Shown here: positions 56,646-63,533 of the stretch, piece by piece | Numbering within the stretch: the stretch's first letter is position 1 | Layout of the letters: each line of letters begins with the position of its first letter | From: Rhodospirillales bacterium | GTDB lineage: Bacteria > Pseudomonadota > Alphaproteobacteria > Rhodospirillales > SHVQ01 | Assembly (NCBI GenBank): GCA_009694195.1 | Contig: SHVQ01000001.1 | Span: 1 to 64,000 of the forward strand | Direction: 5' to 3' | DNA length: 64,000 bases | Notes under the pieces: model-generated | Seen by the model: only the letters and a program-made list of their open reading frames with translations | What the model was told of the DNA's origin: nothing | Database searches by the model: none | Made by a program: the position numbers and the translations under genes

Positions 56646-57035
56646 CTACGCGCGGCTGCGGAGCCGATCGGTTGCGCGCCGCTCCTGCTTGGTCGGCCGG
56701 CCGCTGCCGGGATCGCGGCGGGCAGCCTCGTGGGAGGCCGCCGATGGATCGCGGGGCCGCGGGGGATCAAGGTCTTGATAGAGCGTGCGAGCGACGCCGG
56801 CCGAACCCCGGCGCGCGACGAATGCCAGCACCTGGATCACGCGGATGTATGGTCCGAGGGGGAACGTGAGCACATCGCCCGAGCGGACCGCGTGATGGGC
56901 TTTATGGATGGAGACGGCGTTGACCCGGAGCTTCCCGGAAGCGCAAAAGCGGGTTGCGAGCGAGCGGCTCTTGAAGAAGCGGGCGTGCCACAACCACTTG
57001 TCGACGCGCTGGGACTCTCCATCCATGCCGCGCAT
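56646..57035 (-). CDS. S4-domain RNA-binding protein (Hsp15-like)
   Basis: Small RNA-binding protein of 129 residues in the Hsp15/HslR group, which bind free 50S subunits carrying peptidyl-tRNA. The S4 domain (about 10-65) begins RVDKWLWHARFFKSRSLA and has VRVNAVSIHKAH-like text and GDVLTFPLG. The C-terminal tail is basic and Pro/Arg-rich. The ATG at 57035 overlaps the helicase stop by one base (TGATG); an ATG nine bases later also fits. This coupling is conserved in related genomes. Confidence 0.92.
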   Translation of the reverse strand: MRGMDGESQRVDKWLWHARFFKSRSLATRFCASGKLRVNAVSIHKAHHAVRSGDVLTFPLGPYIRVIQVLAFVARRGSAGVARTLYQDLDPPRPRDPSAASHEAARRDPGSGRPTKQERRATDRLRSRA

Positions 57036-59530
57036 CAACTCCGGATCCGCAGATCTTTCAGCTTGGCGAAGGCGGAGTGAGATGTAGACCGGCCGCGTTC
57101 CCGGGGTTTCTTGGGCTGGCGCGGCACGGCCGGGTGGAAACGGACCGCACCGTCGACCCGCTTCGACCGAAATCCCAGCGCGCCAAGGACGCCTTCCATT
57201 TCGCGGGCGCCGCAGCCGGCGAGGGAGAGCAGCGCGGCATCCTCGACCGCCGCGCCTTCGCGCCCGAGCGACCACACGCGGGCCGAAAGACGCTCGAGGA
57301 TGTCGACGCGGACGGCGATCGAGCCGAGCGGCCGATAACCGACCGCTTCATACCATGAACGGGTTACCCCGGCCTCGACGGGGACGGACATCCGCCCGGA
57401 AGCCGGCAGGATCGAAAGGCCGCCGGCATTTTCCCACACCCTCCACAGGAGCGCCCGCATGGCGATCGCCTTCGGCTTCAGCATCGCCGGCATGAAGATG
57501 CTTTCGCGGCCGAGGCGAACCCCCAACTTGCGGAGCGTCTCCCGTCCATCGCGGTCGAGGGCAGCGACTTCGGAGGTAGCACGCGCGCGCGGCATGGAGC
57601 CGAAAGATTCGCAGAGTTGATAGATGATACCGCGGGCGGGACCCGCAACCCCCGAGCGCGATGCATTGATGAGCGGACCGAGCGTCCGTTCGATCGTCGC
57701 TTCCACCAATGCTTTCAGGCGGGTTGCGATGCGGGTGGCATGCGCAGATTCAAGAAGTGTGCTCGAGATGGCTTCGACGCCCGGCGCGAGGCGATCGTTC
57801 CGTTTGACGAGGCGGCCGACGGGCGCATTCCGCCAATGGACACAACCGTCGTCGGCGAGCGAGAACGCATCGTCATCGTCGTCCTCGAGGTTTCGCACGC
57901 GAGCGCGGATCTCCGGGCCGAGCGCCCGCTCGGCTGCGTTCAATGTCGACTTGTGGGCGGCGCTCGCGCTTTCGGGCGCGGCGACGAACCGGAATCCCTC
58001 GAGCGCGCCGACGTTCTGACCCTCGACGATGACCCCGCCGTCGCGATCGATCACGGCGGAAAGCTCGCCCTGCTCTTTCATGCGGCTCATCAGCACGGAC
58101 GTACGCCGATCGACGAACCGCTGCGTCAGCCGATCGTGAAGGGCATCGGAGAGCCGGTCTTCCACCTGCCTCGTCCGGGTCCGCCAATGGGCGGAGTCCT
58201 GAACCCAGTCGCCGCGAAAGGCGATGTACGTCCATGTGCGAATGCCGGCGATGCGCGTCACGAGCGCCTCGATGTCACCGTCCGTTCGGTCGAGCCTGGC
58301 AACCTGATCGGCAATCCAGTCCGTCGGGAGCCTGCCATCTTCCTTCATGAGATGTAGAAAAATGCGAGCGAGCACTCGCGCGTGGCCTTCGCTCATGACC
58401 TTGCCGAAATCGGGGATTTGGCAGACCTCCCACAAGAGCCGCACGGCGTCGCGCCCCCGCGCGAGGCCTTGAATGTCAGTGTCGGAAGCAAGCAACGCCA
58501 GGGCAAGCTCGTCCTCGGCTTCGCGGGCCTTCACCAGGCCCTCCTGCTCCGGCGCGACCTGCAAGCACTTTCGGAGCGCGTCGATGGAGGCAAATTGCAG
58601 GTCCGCGTTGCGCCATACAATGAAGGAGAGCGGGTCGAACCGATGGGTCTCGATCCGCTCGATCGTTTCCTCGTCGAAAGAACCGATGTCGGCCGTGGTT
58701 CCGAAGGTGCCGTCGTTCATGTGGCGGCCCGAGCGGCCCGCGATCTGGGCAAGCTCGGCGGCGGTGAGGGCGCGCGACCGCCGGCCGTCGAATTTGCGCG
58801 TCGCGGCGAACGCGACGTGGTCGACATCCATGTTGAGACCCATGCCGATGGCGTCCGTCGCGACGAGATAATCGACCTCGCCGGCCTGGTACATTGCCAC
58901 CTGAGCGTTGCGTGTCCGCGGCGACAGCGCGCCCAGGACCACGGCGGCGCCGCCGCGCTGGCGGCGGACCATTTCGGCGATCGTGTAAACGTCCGCCGCC
59001 GAAAAGGCGACGACCGCGCTCCGCGGCGGCAGGCGATTGATGTTCCTGGGGCCCGTGTAGGAGAGGGTCGAAAACCGCGGCCGTTGCACGAAATTGATGC
59101 CGGGAACGAGCCGCCGGATCAGCGGGCGGATGGTCTCGGCCCCGAGGAACATGGTTTCACCCTCGCCGCGGGCCCGCAGCAGTCGATCGGTGAAGACGTG
59201 CCCGCGGTCCGGGTCCGCGCACATCTGAATTTCGTCGACGGCAAGGAAGTCGACGGGCCTGTCGAGAGGCATCGATTCGACCGTGCAGATGAAGTAGCGC
59301 GCGTGGGCCGGTATGATCTTTTCTTCGCCGGTGAGGAGGGCTACCTGGGCCTTGTCTTTGATCGCGACTGCCCGGTCGTAGTTTTCGCGCGCGAGCAGGC
59401 GCAGCGGGAAGCCGATCATGCCGCTCGGGTGACCGAGCATCCGCTCCATCGCGAGATAGGTTTTGCCGGTGTTGGTGGGCCCGAGGACGGCAACGACGCG
59501 CGCCCGGCCGCCCGACGTGTCGATCTGCAT
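57035..59530 (-). CDS. SUV3-like ATP-dependent RNA/DNA helicase
   Basis: DExH-type helicase related to the mitochondrial SUV3 degradosome helicase, 831 residues. The Walker A motif GPTNTGKT lies at 17-24 and the DEAD-like box is DEIQ in LAVDEIQM. The C-terminal half has the helicase domain 2 (ATDAIGMGLNM, QIAGRSGRH), a SUV3 C-terminal region and a low-complexity tail. The ATG at 59530 is preferred because it fits the family N-terminus; an ATG at 59623 would add 31 residues and overlap pcm by 23 bp. The stop is shared with the S4 gene start. Confidence 0.9.
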   Translation of the reverse strand: MQIDTSGGRARVVAVLGPTNTGKTYLAMERMLGHPSGMIGFPLRLLARENYDRAVAIKDKAQVALLTGEEKIIPAHARYFICTVESMPLDRPVDFLAVDEIQMCADPDRGHVFTDRLLRARGEGETMFLGAETIRPLIRRLVPGINFVQRPRFSTLSYTGPRNINRLPPRSAVVAFSAADVYTIAEMVRRQRGGAAVVLGALSPRTRNAQVAMYQAGEVDYLVATDAIGMGLNMDVDHVAFAATRKFDGRRSRALTAAELAQIAGRSGRHMNDGTFGTTADIGSFDEETIERIETHRFDPLSFIVWRNADLQFASIDALRKCLQVAPEQEGLVKAREAEDELALALLASDTDIQGLARGRDAVRLLWEVCQIPDFGKVMSEGHARVLARIFLHLMKEDGRLPTDWIADQVARLDRTDGDIEALVTRIAGIRTWTYIAFRGDWVQDSAHWRTRTRQVEDRLSDALHDRLTQRFVDRRTSVLMSRMKEQGELSAVIDRDGGVIVEGQNVGALEGFRFVAAPESASAAHKSTLNAAERALGPEIRARVRNLEDDDDDAFSLADDGCVHWRNAPVGRLVKRNDRLAPGVEAISSTLLESAHATRIATRLKALVEATIERTLGPLINASRSGVAGPARGIIYQLCESFGSMPRARATSEVAALDRDGRETLRKLGVRLGRESIFMPAMLKPKAIAMRALLWRVWENAGGLSILPASGRMSVPVEAGVTRSWYEAVGYRPLGSIAVRVDILERLSARVWSLGREGAAVEDAALLSLAGCGAREMEGVLGALGFRSKRVDGAVRFHPAVPRQPKKPRERGRSTSHSAFAKLKDLRIRS

Positions 59531-59600
59531 GAGAGAAGGATTAGCGCGCGGAGCCCAAAACGCAAGGACCCGCTCGAATTGCCTCAAAACCGCGTGATCG

Positions 59601-60314
59601 TCAGCAGAGCGGCTTCCGTTCATCCACGATGCGCTCGACCATCGGCACGAAGGCGACGGGCAGCATTTTTTCGCACTCGAGCTTGTCGTCTTCGCCCTTG
59701 ACGCATCTGTAGAGCATCTGGGTGTCGTGCGGTCTGCCGATGGGGATCACCAAGCGGCCGCCGGGCTTCAGCTGCCGGGCCAGGGCATCCGGAATTCGTT
59801 CGGGCGCGGCGGTGGCGATGATGGCATCGAAGGGCGCCTTCTCGGGCCATCCCTGGAAGCCATCGCCATGGCGGACCTCGACATCGCGGTAACCGAGCCG
59901 GCGGAGACGCCCGGCCGCGCTCTCGGCGAGCGCCTTTACGGTTTCCACGCTGAAGACGGCGCCGGCGAGCTCGGCGAGCACCGCCGCCTGATAGCCGCAG
60001 CCGGTGCCGATTTCGAGCACCCGATCGGTGGGCCCGAGGTCGAGGAGATCGGTCATCAGGGCGACAATGTACGGCTGCGAGATCGTTTGCCCATAGCCGA
60101 TCGAGCGCGGCCGGTTCACGTACGCTTGGGCGGCGTCCGACTCCGGAACGAAATCATGCCGCGGTACTTTCTTGATCGCTTCCATCACGCGCGGCGAGAA
60201 CGCGCCGCGCCCGGTCCACGATTCCGTGTCCCGCGCCTCCCGCTCGATTTCGCTGAGCAAGCGGGCTCGGGCCTTGTCGCGCTTCGAATCGTCCACCGCG
60301 TTCATCCCGGCCAT
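59601..60314 (-). CDS. pcm: Protein-L-isoaspartate O-methyltransferase
   Basis: SAM-dependent repair enzyme of 237 residues that methylates isoaspartyl residues in damaged proteins. The family motifs are GQTISQPYIVA (75-85) and EIGTGCG (101-107). The start has MAGMNAVDDSKRD; an inner ATG is possible. The stop lies 70 bp upstream of the helicase start used here, so the two could be co-transcribed. It is divergent from the PEBP gene (47 bp). Confidence 0.96.
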   Translation of the reverse strand: MAGMNAVDDSKRDKARARLLSEIEREARDTESWTGRGAFSPRVMEAIKKVPRHDFVPESDAAQAYVNRPRSIGYGQTISQPYIVALMTDLLDLGPTDRVLEIGTGCGYQAAVLAELAGAVFSVETVKALAESAAGRLRRLGYRDVEVRHGDGFQGWPEKAPFDAIIATAAPERIPDALARQLKPGGRLVIPIGRPHDTQMLYRCVKGEDDKLECEKMLPVAFVPMVERIVDERKPLC

Positions 60315-60361: not shown

Positions 60362-60832
60362 ATGCCGTTTCGCCTCCAAAGCACCGCCATCCTGGAAGGG
60401 CGACCGATCCCGCCGATCTATACGTGCGAGGGCAAGGACATCTCTCCGCCGCTGCAATGGAGCGATGCTCCTGAGGGGACGCTGAGTTTCGCTCTCGTCT
60501 GCAGCGACCCCGATGCGCCGGCGGGCACGTGGTACCATTGGGCCGTTTTCGACATCCCGGCGGGTGCGGCGAGTCTTCCGCAAGCGTACGCTCCCGAGGC
60601 CAAGGTGGGCGCGACACTGCAAGGCCTCAACGACTTCAAGAAGCTCGGCTACGGGGGTCCCTGCCCGCCAAAAGGACACGGCCCCCACCGTTACCGCTTT
60701 GTCCTGACGGCCCTTGGCACGGCTAATTTGAGTCTCTCGCCCGGGGCCGGCGCTCGCGACGTCGAAAAAGCCGCCGCCGAGCACAGCCTCGGGCAAGCCG
60801 TTCTCGTCGGCACGTATTCGCGATCACGCTGA
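60362..60832 (+). CDS. YbhB/YbcL-type PEBP (Raf-kinase-inhibitor-like) protein
   Basis: Cytoplasmic phosphatidylethanolamine-binding-family protein of 156 residues. The ligand-binding signature is CSDPDAPAGTWYHWAVFDIP (about 47-66), followed by GYGGPCPPKGHGPHRYRF. The ATG at 60362 matches the family start; an in-frame extension of 13 residues is not conserved. A role in kinase control is known for eukaryotic members only. Confidence 0.93.
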   Translation: MPFRLQSTAILEGRPIPPIYTCEGKDISPPLQWSDAPEGTLSFALVCSDPDAPAGTWYHWAVFDIPAGAASLPQAYAPEAKVGATLQGLNDFKKLGYGGPCPPKGHGPHRYRFVLTALGTANLSLSPGAGARDVEKAAAEHSLGQAVLVGTYSRSR

Positions 60833-60854
60833 CCCTCGGTGCTGCTCGGCCGCC

Positions 60855-61424
60855 CTAACCGACGAGGTGGTGTTTCCCCAGCGGTGTGACGGTGCTCGCC
60901 TGAGGCCCTTTCTCGCCCATTTCTTCGACGAACCGGACCAGCGTTCCGACCTTCAACTCCTTGAAACCGCCGTTGCTGACGACGCTGTTGCGATGAAAGT
61001 AAATTTCGCGGCCGTCCGAAGACTCGATGAACCCGTATCCGTCGTCCTCGAAGACGCGGGCCACCGTGCCATGCGGTGGCGTTTCATGGGTCTTGACGTC
61101 GCCGCGAATCGTCCGCGCATAATCCTGGAGCTGGCGGCTCGCGGCGTTGAACGCATCGCGGATCGCGACGTAGACGTCCCGGTGGGACTCGTCCTTCATG
61201 CGATCGCGTCCGACGAGGATGTCCTTCCCGGGCATGGAGAGGTGTAGACGCACCTGATAAAACATTCCGCCGCGCGGCCGCCGGGGCGGACACTCGACCA
61301 CCACGGCCAAGGCGGTAATGCGATGCGAAAACTTTTCGAGAGCCGCCGCCTTTTCGCGAATAAAGGCCTCGACCGCGGGCGAGGGCTCCGTATGGCGGAA
61401 CGAAATATTGATCGGAACCTGCAT
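60855..61424 (-). CDS. HPF/RaiA-cold-shock-domain fusion protein
   Basis: Protein of 189 residues with an S30AE (HPF/YfiA) fold at about 3-110, containing SFRHTEPSPAVEAFIREKA and the basic PPRRPRGG, and a cold-shock domain at about 125-188. The CSD has the RNP1-like YGFIES and RNP2-like IYFHRN. The N-terminus binds ribosomes in the hibernation family; the CSD would add single-stranded RNA binding. The ATG at 61424 is preferred because GGAAGGGG lies upstream and the start MQVPINISF fits HPF; an ATG at 61460 would add 12 residues. It is divergent from htpG and convergent with the PEBP gene. Confidence 0.9.
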   Translation of the reverse strand: MQVPINISFRHTEPSPAVEAFIREKAAALEKFSHRITALAVVVECPPRRPRGGMFYQVRLHLSMPGKDILVGRDRMKDESHRDVYVAIRDAFNAASRQLQDYARTIRGDVKTHETPPHGTVARVFEDDGYGFIESSDGREIYFHRNSVVSNGGFKELKVGTLVRFVEEMGEKGPQASTVTPLGKHHLVG

Positions 61425-61567
61425 CGGGGATCCCCTTCCTGTTGTTAACGCTCTTATCATCCCGGCGGCGGGAGCGCTGCATTGACTTGCGTCATTCCCC
61501 TCTCTTTCGACGTGGGGGTGGCGGATATCCGGGTCAAGGGACCCCTTCGGAGAAAGGTGGCGTCGCC

Positions 61568-61596
61568 CTTGCGGGGGACAGCGCCGAAACACATAT
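61568..61596 (+). promoter_or_regulatory. RpoH-type promoter of htpG
   Basis: CTTG (61568-61571) and ACATAT (61591-61596) are 19 nt apart. The pattern is like the clpB promoter (CTTG-N18-CCATAT). The htpG ATG lies 51 nt beyond. The spacer is one base longer than ideal, so the call is moderate. Confidence 0.45.
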
Positions 61597-61646
61597 CAGG
61601 GGCACTGCAAGAGACCCTTGGGCGTGCAAGTCGGAGAATCATTCGC

Positions 61647-63533
61647 ATGGCAAAGGAAAAATTCTCGTTTCAAGCCGAGGTCAGCAAGCTCCTCGATATC
61701 GTCGCCCGATCATTGTACAGCCACAAGGAGGTTTTCCTCCGCGAATTGATCTCCAATGCTTCCGATGCCTGTGATCGCTTGCGCTACCTCGCCCTCACCG
61801 AGCCCAAGCTGACCGAGGGAGATCCCGCATTCAAGATTGCGCTCACTCCGGACAAGAAGACGCGCACCCTCACTGTCAGCGACAATGGCATCGGAATGGA
61901 CCGGACGGAGTTGACCGAGAACCTCGGCACCATCGCGCGCTCCGGAACCCAAGCCTTTCTCACCCAAATGAGCGGCGACAAGGCAAAAGACGTGAACCTG
62001 GTGGGCCAGTTCGGGGTTGGCTTCTATTCGGCCTTCATGGTCGCCGACAAGGTCGAGGTCCGCACGCGGAAGGCGGGTTCCGACAAGGCGTGGCTCTGGA
62101 CATCAGACGGCAAGGGCGAATACACGATCGAAGAGGCCGAGCGTCCGTCGCGCGGGACCGACGTCATCCTTCATCTGTCGAAGGACGACGAGGAATTCGC
62201 CGAGCCCCTGAGACTCAAGGTGATCGTCACGCAGTACTCCGACCACATCGGCATTCCCATCGTGGTCAAGGAGGACGGAAAAGAAGAAACGGCGAATGCG
62301 GCGTCGGCTCTCTGGACACGCCCGGCCAAGGACATCACGGCCGACCAGCATAGAGAATTCTACCACCACGTCGCCCATGCGGCCGACGACCCTTGGCTGA
62401 TCATGCACAACCGGGTGGAGGGCGTCCTTTCCTACACGAATCTTTTGTTCGTCCCCTCGGCGCGTCCGTTCGACATTTTCCATCCGGAGCGGCGTCACCG
62501 GGTGAAGCTCTACGTAAAGCGCGTGTTCATCACCGACAACTGCGAAGGGCTGCTGCCGGGCTATCTCAGATTCGTGAAAGGCGTTGTGGACTCGGAGGAT
62601 CTCAACCTCAACGTCAGCCGCGAGATGCTGCAGCGCGACCCGAAGCTCGCGAAGATCCGTGCCGGCCTCGTCAAACGGATTCTCGGCGAGCTCAAGAAGA
62701 AGGCGGAAAGCGACCCCGACGGCTACGCCAAATTCTGGGATGCGTTCGGCGCCGTTCTGAAAGAAGGTCTCTACGAAGACTTCGAGAACCGCGACCGACT
62801 GCTCGAGATCACTCGCTTCCGCTCGACGCGCGGCGACGTTCGGGTGAGCTTGGACTCGTACATCAAGAACATGAAGAAGGGGCAGGACGCGATCTTCTAT
62901 ATCAGCGGCGAGGATCCGGCCCAGCTTGCCCTCAGCCCGCAACTCGAAGGCTTCAAGGCGAAGGGGATCGAGGTGCTCATCCTCATCGACCCGGTCGATG
63001 AATTCTGGCTGCCGGCTCTCGGTGCCTACAAAGACAAGCCGTTTCAGTCCGTCACCCGCGGCGGGGTCGACATGGACAAGATCGAGGGTCAGGTCAAGGA
63101 GGAGGCCAAACCCGCGGAGACCGAAAAGGATAAATCAGACGTCGACCTCGATCCGCTCATCAAGGCGTTCACGAGCGCGCTTGGCATGGGCGTCAAGAAG
63201 GTCCGGGCGTCGGCCCGTCTGACCGACAGCGCCGTCTGCCTCGTCGCCGACGACGGCGATCTCGACATCCACTTCGAGCGCATGCTGAAAGCGCACCGGC
63301 AGCTCGGGGCTCAGGAAGCGGCACCCCGCATTCTCGAGGTCAATCCGCGCCACGCGTTGATCCGGAAGCTCGCCGAGGTTGCGAAGACCGTCGCCGGCAA
63401 GGACGGTATCCTCGATGACGCGGCGCACCTCCTGTTCGAGCAGGCGCGCATCGTCGAAGGCGAGCCCGTCACCGACCCCCAGGCCTTCGCGCGCCGTCTC
63501 GCCGCCATGCTGGAGCGCGGCCTGACGGTCTAG
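61647..63533 (+). CDS. htpG: Molecular chaperone HtpG (Hsp90)
   Basis: ATP-dependent dimeric Hsp90 of 628 residues. The N-terminal GHKL ATPase domain has ELISNASDACDRL, DNGIGM and GQFGVGFYSAF; the middle and C-terminal domains follow, with NVSREMLQRDP. The ATG at 61647 gives MAKEKFSFQAEVSKLL, the family start; the upstream in-frame extension is not conserved. A RpoH-type promoter lies upstream. It ends 10 bp from the convergent DUF1223 gene. Confidence 0.98.
   Translation: MAKEKFSFQAEVSKLLDIVARSLYSHKEVFLRELISNASDACDRLRYLALTEPKLTEGDPAFKIALTPDKKTRTLTVSDNGIGMDRTELTENLGTIARSGTQAFLTQMSGDKAKDVNLVGQFGVGFYSAFMVADKVEVRTRKAGSDKAWLWTSDGKGEYTIEEAERPSRGTDVILHLSKDDEEFAEPLRLKVIVTQYSDHIGIPIVVKEDGKEETANAASALWTRPAKDITADQHREFYHHVAHAADDPWLIMHNRVEGVLSYTNLLFVPSARPFDIFHPERRHRVKLYVKRVFITDNCEGLLPGYLRFVKGVVDSEDLNLNVSREMLQRDPKLAKIRAGLVKRILGELKKKAESDPDGYAKFWDAFGAVLKEGLYEDFENRDRLLEITRFRSTRGDVRVSLDSYIKNMKKGQDAIFYISGEDPAQLALSPQLEGFKAKGIEVLILIDPVDEFWLPALGAYKDKPFQSVTRGGVDMDKIEGQVKEEAKPAETEKDKSDVDLDPLIKAFTSALGMGVKKVRASARLTDSAVCLVADDGDLDIHFERMLKAHRQLGAQEAAPRILEVNPRHALIRKLAEVAKTVAGKDGILDDAAHLLFEQARIVEGEPVTDPQAFARRLAAMLERGLTV

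What the first reader, a model, noticed from the sequence alone, without database searches (positions are those of the whole stretch)
60855..61424. HPF/RaiA-cold-shock-domain fusion
An N-terminal ribosome-hibernation domain is fused to a C-terminal cold-shock domain with intact RNP1 and RNP2-like motifs. This would put a single-strand RNA-binding domain where long HPF proteins carry a dimerisation domain. It is divergent from htpG, so stress control may be shared.
Basis: partly seen in the sequence, partly recalled or inferred. Interest (0 to 1): 0.5.

Follow-up and report, generated by a model that had tools for sequence, protein, structure and literature searches.

The report
Known HPFcold ribosome hibernation protein
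The gene encodes a protein that puts bacterial ribosomes to sleep and carries an RNA-binding tail; the fusion is real, but the family is widespread and its structure on a ribosome was published in 2026, so this copy is an ordinary member.

Summary
The minus-strand ORF 61424-60855 (189 aa) has an HPF/RaiA domain (PF02482, residues 5-105, E 1.5e-14) followed in one frame by a cold-shock domain (PF00313, residues 119-181, E 2.1e-13), each above Pfam's cut-off. It is not new. The best PDB match by sequence, over residues 1-180 at E 2.2e-38, is chain 9 of 9T0Z, given in the paper as C. burnetii 30S with HPFcold, CBU_0020 (PMC13392368). There the HPF domain sits in the decoding centre and the CSD binds the 16S anti-Shine-Dalgarno end, on monomeric ribosomes. 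One pattern scan gave 107 confirmed relatives; the 80 kept all encode both domains in one open frame. Divergence from htpG is real but htpG was found in only 1 of these 80 loci. Modest additions: in the window's order 4 of 8 fusion-bearing genomes also hold a long-HPF C-terminal domain gene, and the HPFcold profile lies far nearer to CSD-less short HPFs than to long HPFs. Verdict: real, explained, ordinary.

The parts
60855..61424 (-). HPFcold gene, 189 aa plus stop
   Evidence: translation; PDB match 9t0z_9 at E 2.2e-38
61110..61412 (-). N-terminal HPF/RaiA (Ribosomal_S30AE, PF02482) domain, residues 5-105
60882..61070 (-). [quoted passage not shown]
61074..61097 (-). short linker, about residues 110-117, between the long helix (84-109) and the first CSD strand (118-125)
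   Evidence: AlphaFold2 model, pLDDT under 50 at 110-114
61425..61646 (.). 222-bp divergent intergenic region between hpfcold and htpG; no sigma-70-like site found

Best explanation
The gene encodes an HPFcold ribosome hibernation factor. Its N-terminal domain occupies the decoding centre of the 30S subunit and blocks tRNA and mRNA. Its C-terminal CSD lies in the mRNA exit channel, binds the anti-Shine-Dalgarno 3' end of 16S rRNA and shields it from RNases, so that idle ribosomes are stored as 70S monomers without needing 100S dimers. The binding was shown by cryo-EM in C. burnetii (PMC13392368); the shielding from RNases is those authors' inference. That this copy does the same is inferred here from full-length homology and the same domain order.
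For: Domain order PF02482-PF00313 in one frame; full-length match to 9t0z chain 9 at E 2.2e-38, whereas other HPF/RaiA structures match only at E 0.07 or worse; short linker and both folds in an AlphaFold2 model built on the window protein and 42 of the 80 loci, with Foldseek matches to cold-shock proteins (3i2z) and to ribosome-bound RaiA (8rd8); the published mechanism; both domains in one frame in 80 of 80 loci.
Against: No functional test in this organism. No 16S gene was found in the held genome, which is 73% complete; that search also missed 5 of its 14 control genomes, so it is a poor test, and the anti-Shine-Dalgarno here was not seen. The contact residues are in the paper's supplement, which was not read, so conservation of contacts was not tested. 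My alignment does not independently reproduce the paper's claim that the CSD is more conserved than the N-terminal domain: mean commonest-letter frequency is 0.660 for the CSD against 0.634, but 0.609 once the motif used for the search is left out. The model's pTM is 0.53, so relative domain placement is unsure.
Confidence: 0.9

Rival explanations
1. The CSD acts on mRNA or off the ribosome, as an RNA chaperone or antiterminator like CspA, with the HPF domain only tethering it to ribosomes.
For: The CSD has the cold-shock fold and RNP-like motifs, and its best NCBIfam match is CspE.
Against: The Coxiella structure places the CSD on the anti-Shine-Dalgarno. The window's genome has 6 other CSD matches, so no gap needs filling. 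The CspE match is far below that model's cut-off (39.8 against 120 bits).
Confidence: 0.07
2. The protein works like long HPF and makes 100S dimers through its C-terminal domain.
For: Similar length and position of the C-terminal domain.
Against: No PF16321 domain in the protein; the Coxiella homologue is on 70S monomers; 4 of 8 fusion-bearing genomes have a separate PF16321 match.
Confidence: 0.03

Closest known systems
HPFcold (CBU_0020) of Coxiella burnetii, PDB 9T0Z and 9TZE, PMC13392368
   Same: Same two Pfam domains in the same order, short linker, about 20 kDa, full-length sequence match
   Different: The window's genome has 6 other CSD matches, whereas the paper found no dedicated cold-shock protein in Coxiella; the gene is beside htpG here
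Long HPF (PF02482 plus PF16321)
   Same: HPF N-terminal domain followed by a second domain
   Different: CSD in place of the dimerisation domain; the HPFcold profile found only 2 of 12 long HPF loci fetched, at E 0.0026 and 3.5e-05
CSD-less short HPFs of the same order
   Same: Closest N-terminal domains, E about 7e-32 to 2e-49 to the HPFcold profile
   Different: No CSD follows in the 21 translated
HibA of Archaea, PMC13324472 (only the start of its abstract seen, in the listing)
   Different: The module is a cystathionine beta synthase (CBS) module, not a CSD

Membership tests
HPFcold | PF02482 domain above the gathering score | tested here: met
   54.9 against 23.7 bits
HPFcold | C-terminal PF00313 domain above the gathering score in the same chain | tested here: met
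   50.4 against 27 bits
HPFcold | Full-length similarity to the solved member | tested here: met
   9t0z_9, residues 1-180 against 6-179, E 2.2e-38
HPFcold | CSD residues that contact the anti-Shine-Dalgarno | not tested
   contacts are in the supplement, not read
HPFcold | Binding to the 30S decoding centre and the 16S 3' end | not testable with these tools
   needs a ribosome complex
Long HPF | C-terminal PF16321 dimerisation domain | tested here: not met
   absent from the protein; no match in the held genome, 73% complete

The most novel reading that the evidence does not exclude
In cells that hold both, HPFcold and long HPF compete for the same decoding-centre site and set a choice between stored 70S monomers and 100S dimers; HPFcold belongs to a second, functionally separate lineage of short HPFs, part of which bears an anti-Shine-Dalgarno guard.
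Probability: 0.25. Interest if true: 0.4.

Novelty: already known. Interest (0 to 1): 0.15.

Why it matters
HPFcold shows a second way to guard the 16S 3' end of idle ribosomes without dimers. That point belongs to the published work. What this window adds is one more member, in an alphaproteobacterial order where the two storage modes can occur in one genome and could be compared in a harmless host. Whether that co-occurrence is already in print (for example in the 2025 preprint, not held here) I do not know.

Tried and rejected
Chance fusion or frame error: rejected, since 80 of 80 homologous loci carry both domains in one frame. Shared regulation with htpG: htpG was found in 1 of 80 loci (L061, with 2102 bases upstream) and in none of the 69 loci with at least 2200 bases upstream; no sigma-70-like site in 60600-61800, 0.2 expected; a heat-shock-like match of 9 of 10 on the HPF side was reached in 40 of 1000 mononucleotide shuffles, and the 8 of 10 on the htpG side is ordinary in them. 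16S 3' end of this genome: none found, by a search that also missed 5 of 14 controls. Fold search: the 50 rows listed show cold-shock proteins and HPF/RaiA separately; 9T0Z is not among them.

Papers: the preprint cited as reference 30 (Chan et al., bioRxiv 2025.11.04.686544) is not in the library; I saw only its citation and what the paper says of it. Of PMC13392368 I saw the outline and abstract, passages, sections 25, 7 and 8 and part 2 of 4 of the references; not the supplement. In the listings I saw no other work on this fusion; two searches listed 20 of 51 and 20 of 28 papers, one search found none, and I saw titles and abstract starts only.

Limits of the counts: the 80 loci came from one peptide pattern inside the CSD, so they say nothing about CSD-less relatives and inflate conservation at that motif. 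27 of 107 confirmed stretches were not kept by the tool. The tree is a quick one on 114 columns with 46 of 100 inner branches open; 5 cold rows (L061, L074, L077, L086, L103) fall outside the branch of 77 cold rows (support 83), so a single cold clade is neither shown nor ruled out. Its outgroup has 2 rows, since the profile found only 2 of 12 long HPF loci fetched. Of 25 genomes with an N-terminal-only match, 21 were translated; 4 (G021, G028, G041, G049) were not. A second S30AE match in G020 (C285, open frame 144 aa, fetched as L126) was not found by the HPFcold profile and stays unclassified.

Full report
What is there. The ORF lies on the minus strand, 61424 down to 60855, 189 aa. Pfam finds Ribosomal_S30AE at residues 5-105 (E 1.5e-14) and CSD at 119-181 (E 2.1e-13), both over their cut-offs. 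NCBIfam gives the same two halves in 13 families, none reaching its own cut-off. An AlphaFold2 model from an alignment of 43 sequences (the window protein and 42 of the 80 loci) has mean pLDDT 82.1 and pTM 0.53, with a helix at 84-109, a weak stretch at 110-114 and CSD strands from 118. Foldseek matches one half to cold-shock proteins and the other to HPF/RaiA (50 rows listed).

What it is. phmmer against the PDB gives chain 9 of 9T0Z, 'Ribosome hibernation promoting factor', over residues 1-180 at E 2.2e-38; the next matches are single cold-shock proteins at 2.9e-08 and weaker, and RaiA/HPF at 0.07 and weaker. PMC13392368 (Nat Commun, June 2026) states that 9T0Z is C. burnetii 30S with HPFcold, CBU_0020: two domains with a six-residue linker, the first in the decoding centre, the CSD in the mRNA exit tunnel on the anti-Shine-Dalgarno, held by bS21 and contacted by uS7, on the monomeric ribosome. 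It reports the fusion in all major proteobacterial classes, Cyanobacteria and several other phyla, and cites a 2025 preprint that also identified it. The finding is therefore known.

How common. One scan of genome contigs with a profile of 8 fusions gave 109 pattern matches, 107 confirmed, 80 kept. All 80 encode an open frame of at least 160 aa that runs from the HPF domain into the CSD; L030 begins at a contig end and L101 is cut inside the CSD by one. By record title, 6 of 80 are outside Pseudomonadota (Planctomycetota L042, L099; Myxococcota L100, L107, L108; Bdellovibrionota L102; all MAGs), 2 titles give no phylum (L084, L103), and 72 are Pseudomonadota.

Relation to other HPFs. Of 60 genomes searched, the window's own and 59 of its order, 8 have a full-length fusion match: G000, G012, G019, G020, G030, G040, G043, G047. 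Four of these 8 (G030, G040, G043, G047, in 3 genera) also have a PF16321 match, the mark of long HPF. G019, listed as 100% complete, has none and has a single S30AE match; G000, G012 and G020 are 73%, 82% and 87% complete, so absence there proves little, and G020 has a second, unclassified S30AE match. A further 25 of the 60 have a match to the N-terminal domain only, and no genome shows both forms at E 0.001 in that search. In the 21 of these 25 that I translated, the profile match ends by position 119 and no CSD follows. The HPFcold profile finds these short proteins at E about 7e-32 to 2e-49, but only 2 of 12 long HPF loci fetched, at 0.0026 and 3.5e-05. In a quick tree of N-terminal domains (82 cold, 21 short, 2 long rows) the long rows stand apart with support 100; the label 'cold' needs 3 changes and 'short' 2, against shuffled means of 21.1 and 19.4; 77 cold rows, the window's among them, sit on one branch (support 83) and 5 others outside it. 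HPFcold is thus best seen as part of a short-HPF lineage in which the CSD was gained or lost; the tree cannot tell which.

Where the window comes from. Loci of G012, G043, G040, G020 and G047 coincide in contig length and position with records titled Rhodospirillales or Defluviicoccus (L061, L036, L074, L077, L087), so the window's order is probably within that part of the Alphaproteobacteria. This is an inference.

Neighbours. Around the gene lie PCMT (59601-60314, minus), a phosphatidylethanolamine-binding-like protein (60362-60832, plus) and htpG (61647-63533, plus). Among the 80 loci PCMT was found in 6 (L039, L044, L058, L061, L074, L077; in L058 on the other strand), the protein of 57035-59623 (helicase-like by my reading, not searched in Pfam) in 4 (L044, L061, L074, L077), a phosphatidylethanolamine-binding relative in 3 (L078, L085, L097) and htpG in 1 (L061), there divergent as in the window. 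Of the 80, 69 had at least 2200 bases upstream, L061 not among them, and 74 at least 1000 downstream. Protein-repair PCMT as a recurrent neighbour fits a stationary-phase role, but the numbers are small and three of the six loci are from the window's own order.

Verdict. The novelty is gone: the same fusion has a ribosome structure in print. Interest 0.15.

Noticed in passing
L081, L089, L091, L093, L095, L101 (from 5001): In six loci titled Methylobacter a stand-alone cold-shock protein gene lies directly upstream of hpfcold on the same strand.
   Followed up: partly
59601-60314: PCMT protein-repair gene near hpfcold; a relative was also found near hpfcold in 6 of 80 loci.
   Followed up: partly
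L012 (G019): A divergent fusion (38% identity) is the only S30AE match in a genome listed as 100% complete that has no PF16321 match.
   Followed up: no
25 genomes of the window's order, for example L009-L011 and L013-L021: A CSD-less short HPF closely related to the N-terminal half of HPFcold; none of these genomes showed a fusion in the same search.
   Followed up: partly
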